A DNA stretch of 64,000 nucleotides from Candidatus Endomicrobiellum trichonymphae (GTDB taxonomy: Bacteria; Elusimicrobiota; Endomicrobiia; Endomicrobiales; Endomicrobiaceae), in assembly GCF_002355835.1 (NCBI RefSeq), contig NZ_AP017459.1, positions 248,001 through 312,000 of the forward strand, read 5' to 3'. Both the position numbers and the translations under genes were made by a program. Shown here piece by piece: positions 38,910-44,925 of the stretch (position 1 is the stretch's first letter; every line of letters begins with the position of its first letter). Below the pieces are notes generated by a model. The model saw only the letters and a program-made list of their open reading frames with translations. It made no database searches and was not told where the DNA came from.

Positions 38910-40373
38910 ATGATGTTTGAACAATCTTTCAAGAATATAGACGATATTTTGCGTAAAGACGCAGGCTGTAGCAGTGAACTTGATTATATTGAGCAGACTT
39001 CTTGGATTTTGTTCTTAAGATATTTAGATAGTTTAGAACAGACAAAAATCAAAGCTGCCCTGCTTGAGGACAAGAAATATACAAATATAATTTTAAAAGA
39101 ATTCCAATGGGATGTTTGGGCATGTCCGAAAAAAGGTGGTAAATTAGATTATAATGAAGCTCGTACAGGCGATGACCTTATTGATTTTGTAAATCAAAAA
39201 CTCTTTCCATATTTTAAAAAATTTAAGACTACTTCTGAAAACTATAATACGATAGAATATAAAATCGGAGAGATTTTCAGCGAACTTAAAAATAAAATCC
39301 AAAGCGGTTATAATTTAAGAGAAATATTAAATATTGTTGATGAATTGAAATTTTCCACTAGCGCTCAAAAACATGAGATGTCTCACCTTTACGAATCAAA
39401 AATTAAGAATATGGGCAATGCCGGACGTAACGGCGGGGAATACTATACTCCGCGTCCGCTTATTAGGACTATAGTAAAAGTTGTAGCGCCCAAAATAGGA
39501 GACAAAATTTATGATGGGGCTGCTGGCTCGGCGGGATTTTTGGTAGAAGCGTTTGTTTACCTGCATGAGAAAGTCAAAACGACAGGAGAGCAGTCCATAT
39601 TACAACACGATACTTTTTACGGCAAAGAGAAAAAAGCTCTTGCGTATATCATAGGAATTATGAATATGATTTTGCACGGCATAGAAGCGCCGAATATTTT
39701 GCATACGAATACTCTTTCAGAAAATATTAAAGATATGCAGGAGAAAGATAAATTCAATGTTGTTCTTGCTAATCCGCCTTTCGGCGGGAAAGAACGTTCT
39801 GAAGTACAGCAGAATTTTGATATTAGAACTGGAGAAACAGCCTTTCTGTTTTTACAGCATTTTATAAAAATACTAAAAGCGGGAGGTAAAGCCGGCGTTG
39901 TTATTAAAAATACATTTTTATCTAATACTGACAATGCTTCTGTATCGCTTCGCAAAGGATTGATTGAAAATTGTAATCTGCATACGGTGCTGGATTTGCC
40001 AAGCGGAGTGTTTATCGGAGCAGGCGTAAAAACTGTAATTTTGTTTTTTGAAAAAGGCAGTCCGACAAGAAAAATTTGGTATTATCAGTTAAATTTAGAC
40101 AGAAATCTTGGCAAGACTAATCCTTTAAGCGAAGATGATTTAGCCGATTTTGTTAAACTTCAAAAAACAAAAGCTGATTCAGATAATTCTTGGACTGTAA
40201 AAATTACGGATATAAATAAAGAAACTTATGACTTATCTGTAAAAAATTCCAATAAAAAAGATGAAACGGCAATAAGAGATCCGGAAGATATATTAAAAGA
40301 AATAGCGGCGTTAGATAAACAGTCCGTTAAAATAATTGCTGAAATTGAAAAAGTTTTAATAATGGAAAAATAA
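38910..40373 (+). CDS. hsdM: Type I restriction-modification methyltransferase subunit HsdM
   Basis: The 487-residue protein has the N-terminal HsdM helical domain and an N6-adenine methyltransferase domain with the SAM region DGAAGSAGFLVEA and catalytic NPPFGG (N288). It methylates adenine at the site chosen by HsdS and is also part of the restriction complex. Two adjacent ATG codons (38910, 38913) follow AAAGGA; the second has slightly better spacing. It is the first gene of hsdM-DUF3800-hsdS-hsdR. It is intact. Confidence 0.95.
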   Translation: MMFEQSFKNIDDILRKDAGCSSELDYIEQTSWILFLRYLDSLEQTKIKAALLEDKKYTNIILKEFQWDVWACPKKGGKLDYNEARTGDDLIDFVNQKLFPYFKKFKTTSENYNTIEYKIGEIFSELKNKIQSGYNLREILNIVDELKFSTSAQKHEMSHLYESKIKNMGNAGRNGGEYYTPRPLIRTIVKVVAPKIGDKIYDGAAGSAGFLVEAFVYLHEKVKTTGEQSILQHDTFYGKEKKALAYIIGIMNMILHGIEAPNILHTNTLSENIKDMQEKDKFNVVLANPPFGGKERSEVQQNFDIRTGETAFLFLQHFIKILKAGGKAGVVIKNTFLSNTDNASVSLRKGLIENCNLHTVLDLPSGVFIGAGVKTVILFFEKGSPTRKIWYYQLNLDRNLGKTNPLSEDDLADFVKLQKTKADSDNSWTVKITDINKETYDLSVKNSNKKDETAIRDPEDILKEIAALDKQSVKIIAEIEKVLIMEK

Positions 40374-41042
40374 ATGGCTTATATTTTTATGGATGAAAGC
40401 GGCTGTTTAGGTTTTGATTTTACAAAAGCCATAACTTCCAGATATTTTGTTATTACACTTTTAATGGCAAAGAATGATAATGTTATTAATAAAGCTGTTA
40501 GTAAAATATTTAAATCAATTCCTAAAAATGAACTTAAAGTTCATTGCGATACATTACATTGCTATAAAAAAAATGACAGGACAAGAATAAAATTATTAGC
40601 GGAGTTGAAAGGTTTGAAAGATTTGAAAGATAAGGATGTAAGCGTAATGTCTATAATTTTGAATAAGCAAAAAGTTTTTGATTATTTACAAAATGAAAGA
40701 CGCGTTTATACAATTATATAACAAAGATACTTTTGGATAGAATTATAAATAAAAGATTATTGCTTTCAGATGAAAGTATTGATTTCATAGCGTCAAGAAG
40801 AGAAACAAATAGGTTCTTAAATGAAAATTTTAAAGGTTATTTGGAAACTAAAACATTACTAAATCACAAATTAAAAATTGAGGTGAGCATAAACTCCCCG
40901 TATTCTGTTAAAGAATGCAAGCGGTAGATTTTGTGTCTTGGGCAATGTTTAGGTAATGTTTAAGAAATATGAACACGACGAGAGTTATTATTACAATATT
41001 ATCAAAAATTTGGTAGTTGATAAAGTGCCTTTATTTAGATAA
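40374..41042 (+). pseudogene. Pseudogene: DUF3800 family protein in the restriction locus
   Basis: The first 115 codons begin MAYIFMDESGCLGF, the typical DUF3800 start with an acidic DES motif. The sequence goes on in other frames: LLLSDESIDFIASRRETNRFLN from 40733, then AVDFVSWAMF and KKYEHDESYYNII to a stop at 41042. At least three breaks are present. One lies at a near-duplicated 11-base stretch (aatgttta.g at about 40944-40965). DUF3800 proteins are predicted nucleases often found near defence genes; the function of this one is unknown and it is now dead. Confidence 0.75.
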
Positions 41043-41219
41043 AAAAAGGAAAGAACGAAGAACCTTAAAAACACTTTAGGCTTTTAAACCTTGAGGAACC
41101 ATTCGGAGCCCCATTTTTAAAGGAAATTACCTTCGCTCACTACTCAGCATAATATAAAATTATATGTAAATGTCAATAATTTGCATTTTAAGATGCTAAA
41201 TAGCTTCAAAGGTTTAGTG

Positions 41220-42491
41220 ATGAGAATAAATAGTAAGTGGGAAGTGAAAAAACTTGGGGAAATTTGTACTTTCATTAATGGATTATGGGCTGGGAAAAAA
41301 TGTCCGTTTATTAATGTTTATGTTATTAGAAATACTAATTTTACTAAAGATGGAAAACTTGATTTATCGAATGTTGTAAATTTATCTCTTGAAAAAAAGC
41401 AATATGAGAAAAAAAGATTAGAGTATGATGATATAATATTAGAAAAGTCTGGAGGAGGACCGAAACAACCCGTCGGAAGAGTTGTTCTTTTTGATATTAA
41501 AAAAGGAAATTTCTCATTTAGCAATTTCACATCAGTTATAAGAATTATTAATAAGAGATATGTATATCCAAAATATTTGTATAACTATTTGTTTTATTGT
41601 TATATATCTGGCATGACTGAGGTTATGCAAAGTCACTCAACAGGTATTAGAAATCTTAATTTTGATGAATATAAGAAAATTAATATAGTATTTCCTTCTA
41701 TTTCAGAGCAGAAAAAAATTGTTGCTAAACTTGATAAATTTTCAGAAAATATAAAAAGACTTGAGGATGCGTCAAGAAAAAATCTTCAGAATGCAAAAGA
41801 TTTATTTAATAGCGTTTTGAATGAAACGTTTAAAAATAAATCTGCCGTAGCCAATGATAATAGACAAGTATATAAAAAAACGCATTGGGAAGTGAAAAAA
41901 CTTGGGGAAATTTGTACTTTCATTAATGGATTATGGGCTGGGAAAAAATGTCCGTTTATTAATGTTTATGTTATTAGAAATACTAATTTTACTAAAGATG
42001 GAAAACTTGATTTATCGAATGTTGTAAATTTATCTCTTGAAAAAAAGCAATATGAGAAAAAAAGATTAGAGTATGATGATATAATATTAGAAAAGTCTGG
42101 AGGAGGACCGAAACAACCCGTCGGAAGAGTTGTTCTTTTTGATATTAAAAAAGGAAATTTCTCATTTAGCAATTTCACATCAGTTATAAGAATTATTAAT
42201 AAGAGATATGTATATCCAAAATATTTGTATAACTATTTGTTTTATTGTTATATATCTGGCATGACTGAGGTTATGCAAAGTCACTCAACAGGTATTAGAA
42301 ATCTTAATTTTGATGAATATAAGAAAATTAATATAGTATTTCCTTCTATTTCAGAGCAGAAAAAAATTGTTGCCAGACTTGACAAACTATCTGCAGAAAC
42401 AAAAAAATTAGAAATTGTTTATCAAAAGAAAATAGATGGTTTAGCAGAACTAAAAAAATCTGTGTTTAAACAAACATTTGATTGCGGGTAG
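41220..42491 (+). CDS. hsdS: Type I specificity subunit HsdS with two identical recognition domains
   Basis: From ATG 41220 (MRINSKWEVKKLGEI) the protein has 423 residues, with AAAGG upstream; an in-frame ATG at 41181 adds 13 residues. Two target-recognition domains, each followed by a coiled spacer helix, give the usual HsdS layout. Unusually, the domains are identical from WEVKKLGEI to SEQKKIVA, while the helices after them differ (AKLDKFSENIKRLED against ARLDKLSAETKKLEI). Normal HsdS domains differ and read two different half-sites. This one should read the same half-site twice, giving a symmetric bipartite target (inference from the pseudo-dyad of HsdS). Confidence 0.93.
   Translation: MRINSKWEVKKLGEICTFINGLWAGKKCPFINVYVIRNTNFTKDGKLDLSNVVNLSLEKKQYEKKRLEYDDIILEKSGGGPKQPVGRVVLFDIKKGNFSFSNFTSVIRIINKRYVYPKYLYNYLFYCYISGMTEVMQSHSTGIRNLNFDEYKKINIVFPSISEQKKIVAKLDKFSENIKRLEDASRKNLQNAKDLFNSVLNETFKNKSAVANDNRQVYKKTHWEVKKLGEICTFINGLWAGKKCPFINVYVIRNTNFTKDGKLDLSNVVNLSLEKKQYEKKRLEYDDIILEKSGGGPKQPVGRVVLFDIKKGNFSFSNFTSVIRIINKRYVYPKYLYNYLFYCYISGMTEVMQSHSTGIRNLNFDEYKKINIVFPSISEQKKIVARLDKLSAETKKLEIVYQKKIDGLAELKKSVFKQTFDCG
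41238..41725 (+). repeat. Perfect direct repeat, copy A (hsdS recognition domain 1)
   Basis: A stretch of 488 bp is identical, base for base by eye, to 41886-42373, with an offset of 648 bp (216 codons, in frame). The 160 bp between the copies are unique. Confidence 0.97.
41886..42373 (+). repeat. Perfect direct repeat, copy B (hsdS recognition domain 2)
   Basis: Second copy of the 488-bp unit. Identity includes silent positions, so the duplication or gene conversion is recent. Sequence differs immediately outside both ends. Confidence 0.97.
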
Positions 42492-42618: not shown

Positions 42619-44925
42619 ATGAACGAAGCGGAAACAAGGGCAGAACTTATAGATCCTAAACTGAAGGACAGCGGCTGGATTGAGGAAAATAATTGTAAAA
42701 TTTTTCGCGAGTTTACTATAGCTGAACCTAAAATCGGACTGCGTTCTTCTCATGGTCTTAAGGCAGATTATGTACTTTCTTATAAAAATGTGAAACTTGC
42801 TGTTGTTGAAGCTAAGAAATCGTCTTTATCTGCCGGCGATGGTGTCAATCAGTCTAAACTGTATGCGCAAAAGTTAAATATTCGTTACGCTTTAGCGACT
42901 AACGGCAGGGGAATTTATTTTATTGATATGGAAACAGGCAAAGAGAAAGAAATAGACAAATTTCCCGATCCGGATGAACTTTATAATAATATTTTCGCAA
43001 TGCAAAATGAATGGCGCGATAGGTTTAATTCCGAGCCTTTTGAAAATAAAGGCGGGTCAATATCTGTGCGTTATTATCAGGAAATAGCCGTAAATAAAGT
43101 TATGTGCGCCGTCTCGGAAAATAAAAATCGTATTTTATTAACTTTAGCCACAGGTACAGGCAAGACTTATATAGCATTTCAAATTGCGTGGAAACTTTTT
43201 AAAACGCGCTGGAATATAAATAAAGACGGCAAAAGGCTGCCGCGTATATTGTTTTTAGCGGATAGAAATATTTTGGCAGACCAAGCGTTTAATACTTTTT
43301 CCGCTTTTCCTGAGGACGCTTTAAAACGCATTAAACCTGAAGAAATAAAAAAGACGGGCAGAGTCCCGACAAACGGCAGTATTTTCTTCACAATTTTTCA
43401 AACTTTTATGAGCGGCGCAGATGAAAAACCCTATTTCGGTCAGTATCCGAAAGATTATTTCGATTTTATTATAATTGACGAATGCCACAGAGGCGGAGCA
43501 AATGACGAGAGTCGGTGGCGCGCTATTTTAGATTATTTCTATCCGGCAGTGCATCTTGGAATGACTGCCACGCCCAAACGTGAAAAAAACGCAGATACAT
43601 ATAAATATTTTGGTGATCCTGTATATATTTATTCTCTTAAAGACGGAATAAACGACGGGTTTTTAACGCCTTTTAAAGTTCGTCGTATTCAAACAACTTT
43701 AGACAGCTATATTTATACTCCTGATGATGATGTTATTGAAGGAGAAGTTAAAAAAAATCATGAGTATGTAATAGAAGAGTTTAATCGAGATATTGAAATT
43801 GAAGAAAGAGAAAAAAAGCATGTTAAAATTTTTATGAATGAAATAGATCAAAAAGAAAAAACGCTTGTTTTTGGCGCAAATCAAGATCATGCGGCTTTGC
43901 TCAGGGATTTAATAAACCAAATTAAAACTATCGAAAATCCTGACTATTGCGTAAGAGTAACTTCAAATGACTGTGAAATAGGGAACCAGCATTTGAGAGA
44001 TTTTCAAGATAATGATAAAACAATTCCTACTATTTTAACTACTTCTCAAAAACTTTCTACGGGTGTTGACGCAAGAAATGTGAGAAATATTGTGCTTATG
44101 CGTTCCGTAAATTCTATGATTGAGTTTAAGCAGATAATAGGCAGAGGAACAAGACTTTTTGACGGTAAAGAATACTTTACAATATATGATTTTGTCGGTG
44201 CTTATAAAAACTTTTCTGATTCTCAATGGGACGGAGAACCTGTAGAAGATGCAGATATTTATGAATCTACTAAAAAAGAACAGATAAAGAGCTTTAAATC
44301 GTCTGATATTGCAGGAGCAGAGGCTTTGCTTGAACGTCCTAAAAAACAGAAAGTTAAAATAAAATTAGCGCCGGGTAAAGAAAGAGAAATTCAATACATG
44401 TCACGGACATCATTTTGGGATGCAAGCGGAATTCCTATATCTGCCGAGCAATTTATATATAAATTATTTGGGAAACTTCCTGAGTTTTTTAAAAATGAGC
44501 AAGAATTAAGAGATATTTGGTCTTATCCGGATACGCGGAAAAAATTTTTAGAAAAACTTGAGCATGCAGGATACGGGCGTAAAGAACTTGAAATTTTACA
44601 GCAACTTACATATACGCAAAACAGCGATTTGTTTGATGCTTTAGAATATCTTGCATATAACGTTAAACCTTTGACAAGAGCGGCTCGAGCAGGAAAAGCA
44701 AAAAATGAAATAGCGAAAGTTGAAGAATTTGAAGATAAGCAAAAAGCTTTTTTAGAGTTTGTTTTGGAAAAGTATGTAGATGCAGGCGTAAAAGAATTGG
44801 AACAAGAAAAGTTGTCTGAGCTTGTCAAGCTGAGATATAACACTATTGATGACGGTTTGGCGGAATTAGGGGATGCTGAACAAATCAAAGAAGTTTTTAT
44901 ATCCTTTCAAAAATATTTGTATTGA
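42619..44925 (+). CDS. hsdR: Type I restriction endonuclease subunit HsdR
   Basis: The protein has 768 residues. An N-terminal nuclease domain carries VEAKK (E64, K66). A superfamily 2 motor follows with Walker A ATGTGKT (177-183), DECH at 287-290 and MTATPKR, then a C-terminal HsdM-contact region. It translocates and cuts unmethylated DNA. It lies 127 bp after hsdS and has no frame break, so the whole restriction system may be active. The length is at the short end for HsdR but matches this subtype. Confidence 0.94.
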   Translation: MNEAETRAELIDPKLKDSGWIEENNCKIFREFTIAEPKIGLRSSHGLKADYVLSYKNVKLAVVEAKKSSLSAGDGVNQSKLYAQKLNIRYALATNGRGIYFIDMETGKEKEIDKFPDPDELYNNIFAMQNEWRDRFNSEPFENKGGSISVRYYQEIAVNKVMCAVSENKNRILLTLATGTGKTYIAFQIAWKLFKTRWNINKDGKRLPRILFLADRNILADQAFNTFSAFPEDALKRIKPEEIKKTGRVPTNGSIFFTIFQTFMSGADEKPYFGQYPKDYFDFIIIDECHRGGANDESRWRAILDYFYPAVHLGMTATPKREKNADTYKYFGDPVYIYSLKDGINDGFLTPFKVRRIQTTLDSYIYTPDDDVIEGEVKKNHEYVIEEFNRDIEIEEREKKHVKIFMNEIDQKEKTLVFGANQDHAALLRDLINQIKTIENPDYCVRVTSNDCEIGNQHLRDFQDNDKTIPTILTTSQKLSTGVDARNVRNIVLMRSVNSMIEFKQIIGRGTRLFDGKEYFTIYDFVGAYKNFSDSQWDGEPVEDADIYESTKKEQIKSFKSSDIAGAEALLERPKKQKVKIKLAPGKEREIQYMSRTSFWDASGIPISAEQFIYKLFGKLPEFFKNEQELRDIWSYPDTRKKFLEKLEHAGYGRKELEILQQLTYTQNSDLFDALEYLAYNVKPLTRAARAGKAKNEIAKVEEFEDKQKAFLEFVLEKYVDAGVKELEQEKLSELVKLRYNTIDDGLAELGDAEQIKEVFISFQKYLY

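What the first reader, a model, noticed from the sequence alone, without database searches (positions are those of the whole stretch)
41220..42491. HsdS with two base-identical recognition domains: predicted symmetric target site
The two target-recognition domains share 488 identical bp (41238-41725 and 41886-42373), in frame, with unique DNA between and around them. Type I specificity subunits normally carry two different domains and read an asymmetric bipartite site. Two equal domains in the pseudo-symmetric HsdS fold should read the same half-site on both strands. Identity at silent positions means the event is recent, by gene conversion or by unequal exchange between hsdS alleles. This suggests specificity switching in a genome that is otherwise shrinking. 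hsdM and hsdR are intact.
Basis: partly seen in the sequence, partly recalled or inferred. Interest (0 to 1): 0.8.

Follow-up and report, generated by a model that had tools for sequence, protein, structure and literature searches.

The report
DNA-recognition gene with doubled domain
A complete bacterial DNA-defence system here carries a DNA-reading protein whose two reading heads are exact copies of each other, so it most likely recognises a symmetric (palindromic) DNA site; this is uncommon, but the same arrangement has been shown to work that way in other bacteria.

Summary
hsdS (41220-42491, 423 aa) contains two base-identical 488-bp copies (41238-41725, 41886-42373), in frame, the only direct repeat of 50 bp or more found in the window. 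Each copy is one complete target-recognition domain (TRD), bounded by the conserved WEVKKLG and EQKKIVA blocks; the conserved helices differ between the slots.

hsdM and hsdR are complete and under purifying selection (dN/dS 0.14 and 0.20 against the nearest relative, like flanking housekeeping genes). That relative has the same locus and nearly the same hsdS helices, but two other TRDs. The nearest TRD homologues (62-65% identical) all sit in slot 1 beside an unlike partner. Of 68 HsdS proteins compared, only this one has near-identical halves.

Best reading: slot 1's TRD was recently copied over slot 2 by recombination (DOMO-like), giving a working Type I enzyme (EcoAI/FtnUII class) with a predicted bipartite palindromic m6A site. 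The principle is known experimentally: Btr188II (ACGN6CGT), an identical-TRD Hpy99XV construct (AAGN5CTT), EcoR124INT. It is a new member of a known kind, unusually clean because the copies are exact. Ongoing switching is not shown (no silent cassette, no inverted repeats). The methylation motif is untested.

The parts
38910..40373 (+). hsdM, 487 aa, modification subunit, complete
   Evidence: Pfam N6_Mtase 217.6 bits and HsdM_N; NPPF motif; dN/dS 0.14 against G063
40374..41043 (+). frame-broken DUF3800-family gene between hsdM and hsdS (bystander); end coordinate approximate
   Evidence: Pfam DUF3800 on the 115-aa first part; remainder continues in other frames
41220..42491 (+). hsdS, 423 aa, specificity subunit with two identical TRDs
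   Evidence: model pLDDT 87; HsdS fold by Foldseek
41238..41725 (+). TRD copy 1 (slot 1), 488 bp
   Evidence: exact match to copy 2
41238..41258 (+). short conserved block TGGGAAGTGAAAAAACTTGGG at the 5' border of slot 1; the same 21-base block (one base different) opens both slots of G063 although its TRDs are unrelated
41726..41885 (+). central conserved region (long helix and linker), unique
   Evidence: 80% identical to G063 at protein level; helix 161-204 in the model
41886..42373 (+). TRD copy 2 (slot 2), 488 bp; its first 21 bases (41886-41906) are the second copy of the border block
42374..42491 (+). C-terminal conserved region (second long helix), different from the central one
   Evidence: dN 0.011 against G063 over 37 codons; helix 377-421
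42619..44925 (+). hsdR, 768 aa, restriction subunit, EcoAI/FtnUII family, complete
   Evidence: NF046051 795.6 bits, cut-off 550, 1-767/768; dN/dS 0.196

Best explanation
A complete Type I (EcoAI/FtnUII-class) restriction-modification locus in whose specificity gene the TRD of slot 1 has recently been copied base for base over slot 2, by homologous recombination at the short conserved blocks that bound each TRD (intragenic gene conversion or unequal exchange, as in DOMO). Shown here: the exact duplication, its boundaries at domain borders, intact hsdM and hsdR under purifying selection, different TRDs in sister species. Inferred: the direction (slot 1 to slot 2) and the recombination route. 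Predicted, not tested: the two equal TRDs, held in inverse orientation by the antiparallel helices, bind the same half-site on both strands, so the M2S enzyme methylates adenine at one interrupted palindrome (half-site, about 5-8 N, reverse complement of the half-site) and HsdR restricts unmodified DNA carrying it. Recombination between the repeats would delete 648 bp in frame and leave a 207-aa half-HsdS expected to dimerise and read the same half-sites.
For: Exact 488-bp repeat in frame. Boundaries at the conserved W and EQKKIVA codons. Same locus, nearly the same helices and two different TRDs in G063 and G021. The two slots of G063 open with the same 21 bases. TRD homologues of 62-65% identity are in slot 1 in six of six cases, with unlike partners. 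67 other HsdS proteins lack near-identical halves. hsdM and hsdR complete and constrained. recA present. Model with two equivalent domains and two long helices. Precedent for function: PMC3936762, PMC4996451, PMC3320862 and PMC2877798, PMC3874165; precedent for the genetic route: PMC3077401.
Against: No methylome and no raw reads. The 3' border shows little shared sequence between slots in G063, so a flanking repeat on that side is weak. hsdS is separated from hsdM by a broken gene, so its expression is not assured. Not every TRD works as a symmetric pair: Hpy99XV TRD1 alone did not modify a palindrome.
Confidence: 0.8

Rival explanations
1. Assembly or amplification chimera: the population (or amplified DNA) carries alleles with this TRD in different slots, and the assembled sequence joins them artificially.
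For: Both copies are identical to the last base, and slots in this gene share short blocks at which chimeras could form. Symbionts of this kind are often sequenced from amplified or pooled DNA (general knowledge). Reads are not available.
Against: Repeat mis-assembly usually collapses copies rather than creating one. The unique spacer and tail match the orthologous positions in G063, the frame is kept, and both borders fall at domain borders. The genome is 99.58% complete with 0.08% contamination, in 4 contigs.
Confidence: 0.1
2. The locus is decaying or silent: the doubled TRD is a passing recombination by-product and the enzyme does not methylate or restrict.
For: A neighbouring DUF3800 gene is broken, and the long hsdM-hsdS gap contrasts with about 20 bp in G021. 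R-M systems are described as rare and scattered in this family (PMC11257099).
Against: All three genes are open and full length, with dN/dS like housekeeping neighbours.
Confidence: 0.12
3. Phase-variable shuffling locus: the doubled TRD is one of several interchangeable states made by a recombinase acting on silent hsdS cassettes.
For: Both TRDs differ between sister species at the same locus.
Against: No inverted repeats in the window. No additional hsdS cassette and no significant fragment of this TRD elsewhere in the genome. The repeat is direct, not inverted, and the other HsdS of the genome is unrelated.
Confidence: 0.04

Closest known systems
Btr188II (Bibersteinia trehalosi Type I system, PMC4996451)
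   Same: Type I M-S-R locus with intervening ORFs; the S gene consists of two copies of one TRD; palindromic ACGN6CGT methylation shown in the native strains and in a cloned system.
   Different: Its copies are imperfect; here they are exact, so the event is more recent. A different TRD, and no methylome here.
M.Hpy99XV, JHP1422/JHP1423 (Helicobacter pylori J99, PMC3936762)
   Same: Identical TRD2 and TRD3; the construct holding just those two methylates palindromic AAGN5CTT.
   Different: The native allele has three TRDs and reads two sites; here there are two only.
DOMO, domain movement in hsdS (PMC3077401)
   Same: TRD sequences move between slots by recombination at flanking blocks; a Type IIG S allele with one TRD in both slots is reported (HPV225_1544).
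   Different: There it was inferred from many alleles of one species; here one genome and two sister species, and the 3' flanking repeat is weak.
EcoR124INT and natural half-HsdS systems such as NgoAV (PMC2877798, PMC3320862, PMC3874165)
   Same: Two equal TRDs give a symmetric bipartite site; EcoR124INT is active as methyltransferase and endonuclease.
   Different: There two separate one-TRD chains dimerise; here both TRDs are in one chain.
M.BstXI (PMC3874165)
   Same: Two-TRD S subunit whose similar TRDs both read CCA, giving a symmetric site.
   Different: Part of a Type II system, with TRDs similar but not identical.

Membership tests
Type I R-M system (EcoAI/FtnUII class) | hsdM, hsdS and hsdR together, with HsdR of the EcoAI/FtnUII family | tested here: met
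   NF046051 795.6 bits against cut-off 550; N6_Mtase and Methylase_S over cut-off
Type I R-M system (EcoAI/FtnUII class) | HsdS with two TRDs joined and followed by long helices | tested here: met
   two Methylase_S matches; model and Foldseek
Type I R-M system (EcoAI/FtnUII class) | sequence-specific m6A methylation and ATP-dependent restriction | not testable with these tools
   needs a methylome or an assay; catalytic motifs present
Symmetric Type I enzymes with a doubled TRD (Btr188II-like) | both TRD slots hold the same TRD | tested here: met
   488/488 identical bases
Symmetric Type I enzymes with a doubled TRD (Btr188II-like) | palindromic bipartite methylation motif | not testable with these tools
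   no methylome available
DOMO (domain movement) | TRDs flanked in both slots by shared blocks at which exchange can occur | tested here: inconclusive
   21-base 5' block shared by both slots in G063 and here; 3' side only weakly similar in G063
DOMO (domain movement) | one TRD sequence found in slot 1 of some alleles and slot 2 of others at the same locus | tested here: inconclusive
   it is in both slots of this allele; no other allele of this species is held, and sister species carry other TRDs
Phase-variable (inverting) hsdS loci | inverted repeats and extra hsdS cassettes | tested here: not met
   no inverted repeats; no further cassette
Half-HsdS (NgoAV-like) systems | HsdS chain with a single TRD | tested here: not met
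   423-aa chain with two TRDs; the genome's second system does have a 214-aa one-TRD HsdS

The most novel reading that the evidence does not exclude
The doubled TRD is a metastable state that the bacterium actively uses: recombination between the 488-bp repeats interconverts double-TRD HsdS, half-HsdS and three-TRD forms and takes up new TRDs without ever losing modification of the resident palindrome, so that specificity turnover is self-safe in a shrinking genome.
Probability: 0.07. Interest if true: 0.55.

Novelty: new member of a known kind. Interest (0 to 1): 0.32.

Why it matters
It is a natural HsdS with base-identical TRDs in one chain, so it isolates what the flanking helices contribute to site spacing and symmetry. 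It also records a very recent TRD-to-TRD conversion at a locus where sister species carry other TRDs, so R-M specificity has kept turning over in this reduced lineage. The underlying principle is already established in other bacteria.

Tried and rejected
(1) Search for a donor cassette in the same genome by protein, Pfam family and DNA: none; the only other HsdS is unrelated. (2) Inversion-type phase variation: no inverted repeats. (3) Whether the whole family has doubled TRDs, suggested at first by a 46% full-length match in G043: rejected, because G043's second TRD is unrelated (26%) and only its first TRD matches. (4) Genome-collection search with the single protein found nothing; the TRD alignment found 20 relatives. 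(5) Half-site prediction from TRD homologues: the plasmid tblastn gave only distant hits (27-40% identical), and no relative of known specificity could be identified. (6) The first AlphaFold run with 4 sequences was poor (pLDDT 43) and was not used. (7) Two papers on R-M and defence systems in this group (PMC4760077, PMC5174739) are not held, so I could not check whether this locus was described there.

Full report
OBSERVATION. The two stretches 41238-41725 and 41886-42373 are identical over exactly 488 bases. They lie 648 bases apart start to start, a multiple of three, within one open frame of 423 codons from ATG 41220 to the stop ending at 42491. No other direct repeat of 50 bp or more, and no inverted repeat, was found in the 64-kb window, so chance is excluded. 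Pfam Methylase_S matches each half separately. The 160 bases between the copies and the sequence around them are unique.

ANATOMY. Each copy starts at the tryptophan codon of WEVKKLGEIC and ends inside EQKKIVA. It therefore covers one entire recognition domain and stops where the long helices begin. The helices differ: after slot 1, KLDKFSENIKRLEDASRKNLQ...; after slot 2, RLDKLSAETKKLEIVYQKK.... An AlphaFold2 model built on 26 sequences (mean pLDDT 87, pTM 0.75) shows two domains with the same order of elements and two helices of 44 and 45 residues, 161-204 and 377-421. Foldseek places it with solved full-length HsdS structures (best TM-score 0.72, 5ybb).

SURROUNDINGS. hsdM (38910-40373) and hsdR (42619-44925) are complete. 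HsdR matches the EcoAI/FtnUII model end to end (795.6 bits, cut-off 550). Catalytic motifs are present: NPPF in HsdM; GTGKT, DECH and D..EAK in HsdR. Against the nearest relative G063, dN/dS is 0.14 for hsdM and 0.20 for hsdR, compared with 0.135 for flanking aroB and 0.17 for folK. The enzyme was thus under constraint at least since that split. Between hsdM and hsdS lies a frame-broken DUF3800 gene; in G021 the two genes are about 20 bp apart.

ORGANISM. The class-level relative G043 has the contig (185,681 bases) and hsdS of MGVC01000013.1, an Elusimicrobia MAG, so the window is from Elusimicrobiota; an Endomicrobium-like termite-flagellate symbiont fits the size and gene content (inference).

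RELATIVES. G063 has the same locus between the same neighbours (aroQ/aroB and folK) and nearly the same hsdS helices. Both of its TRDs are different, from each other and from ours. G021, another member of the genus, likewise carries two other TRDs. The TRD itself has relatives of 62-65% identity in Elusimicrobia, Chloroflexi, Moranbacteria (two), Parcubacteria and Halobacillus. In all six of these it sits in slot 1 and is paired with an unlike domain. More distant relatives occur in slot 2 or in large fused enzymes. In a survey of 68 HsdS proteins, drawn mainly from the same phylum and from the TRD relatives, only this one has near-identical halves (89% over 198 aa, helices included). The next highest is 47% over 146 aa.

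HISTORY. In G063 the two slots, although their TRDs are unrelated, begin with the same 21 bases, TGGGAAGTGAAAAAACTCGGG. Ours read the same with one change. Such blocks are the exchange points described for domain movement (PMC3077401). The ends of our TRD (GEIC, SEQKKIV) resemble slot 1 of G063 more than slot 2, and the TRD's nearest relatives live in slot 1, so copying from slot 1 over slot 2 is the likelier direction (inference). Zero differences over about 96 synonymous sites bounds the divergence of the copies at about 0.03, against 0.2-0.35 for synonymous sites between this genome and G063 in the R-M genes and their neighbours. The event is recent unless conversion keeps renewing the identity. 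recA is present. No donor copy exists elsewhere in the genome.

MECHANISM. The antiparallel helices place the two TRDs in inverse orientation (review PMC3874165), so equal TRDs should read the same half-site on the two strands. This has been demonstrated elsewhere. An H. pylori HsdS reduced to its two identical TRDs methylates AAGN5CTT (PMC3936762). A natural Bibersteinia HsdS with two imperfect copies of one TRD methylates ACGN6CGT (PMC4996451). EcoR124INT recognises GAAN7TTC, is active as a methyltransferase, and was studied as an endonuclease in vitro (PMC2877798, PMC3320862). The prediction here is one interrupted palindrome, methylated at the same adenine on both strands. The half-site and the spacer length cannot be deduced from the data at hand. 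Deletion between the repeats would be in frame and leave a 207-aa half-HsdS with the same expected half-sites.

VERDICT. The claim of present-day switching is not supported. The thing is a new, unusually clean member of a known kind. The main residual doubt is assembly, which raw reads would settle.

Noticed in passing
L022 4170-9531 (G000 contig C1, about 74169-79530): A second Type I locus in the same genome has overlapping open frames for hsdM (570 aa), a one-TRD half-HsdS (214 aa) and hsdR (1001 aa). It too would be expected to read a symmetric site, as a half-HsdS dimer, so both Type I systems found in this genome look symmetric.
   Followed up: partly
40374-41043: A DUF3800-family gene between hsdM and hsdS is broken by frameshifts. 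G063 has other small open frames at the same place (L018 7154-8051), while G021 has no insert, so this gap seems to be an insertion-prone spot.
   Followed up: partly
L067 (G082:C8), HsdS of 413 aa: The second most symmetric HsdS of the survey: halves 47% identical over 146 aa, possibly an older TRD duplication that has diverged.
   Followed up: no
L089, L090, L091 (G061:C51, G021:C86, G005:C26): Shorter S-like open frames (331-336 aa) with two Methylase_S matches only about 70-80 bases apart occur in several genomes of the same genus; a distinct S-subunit type that was not analysed.
   Followed up: no
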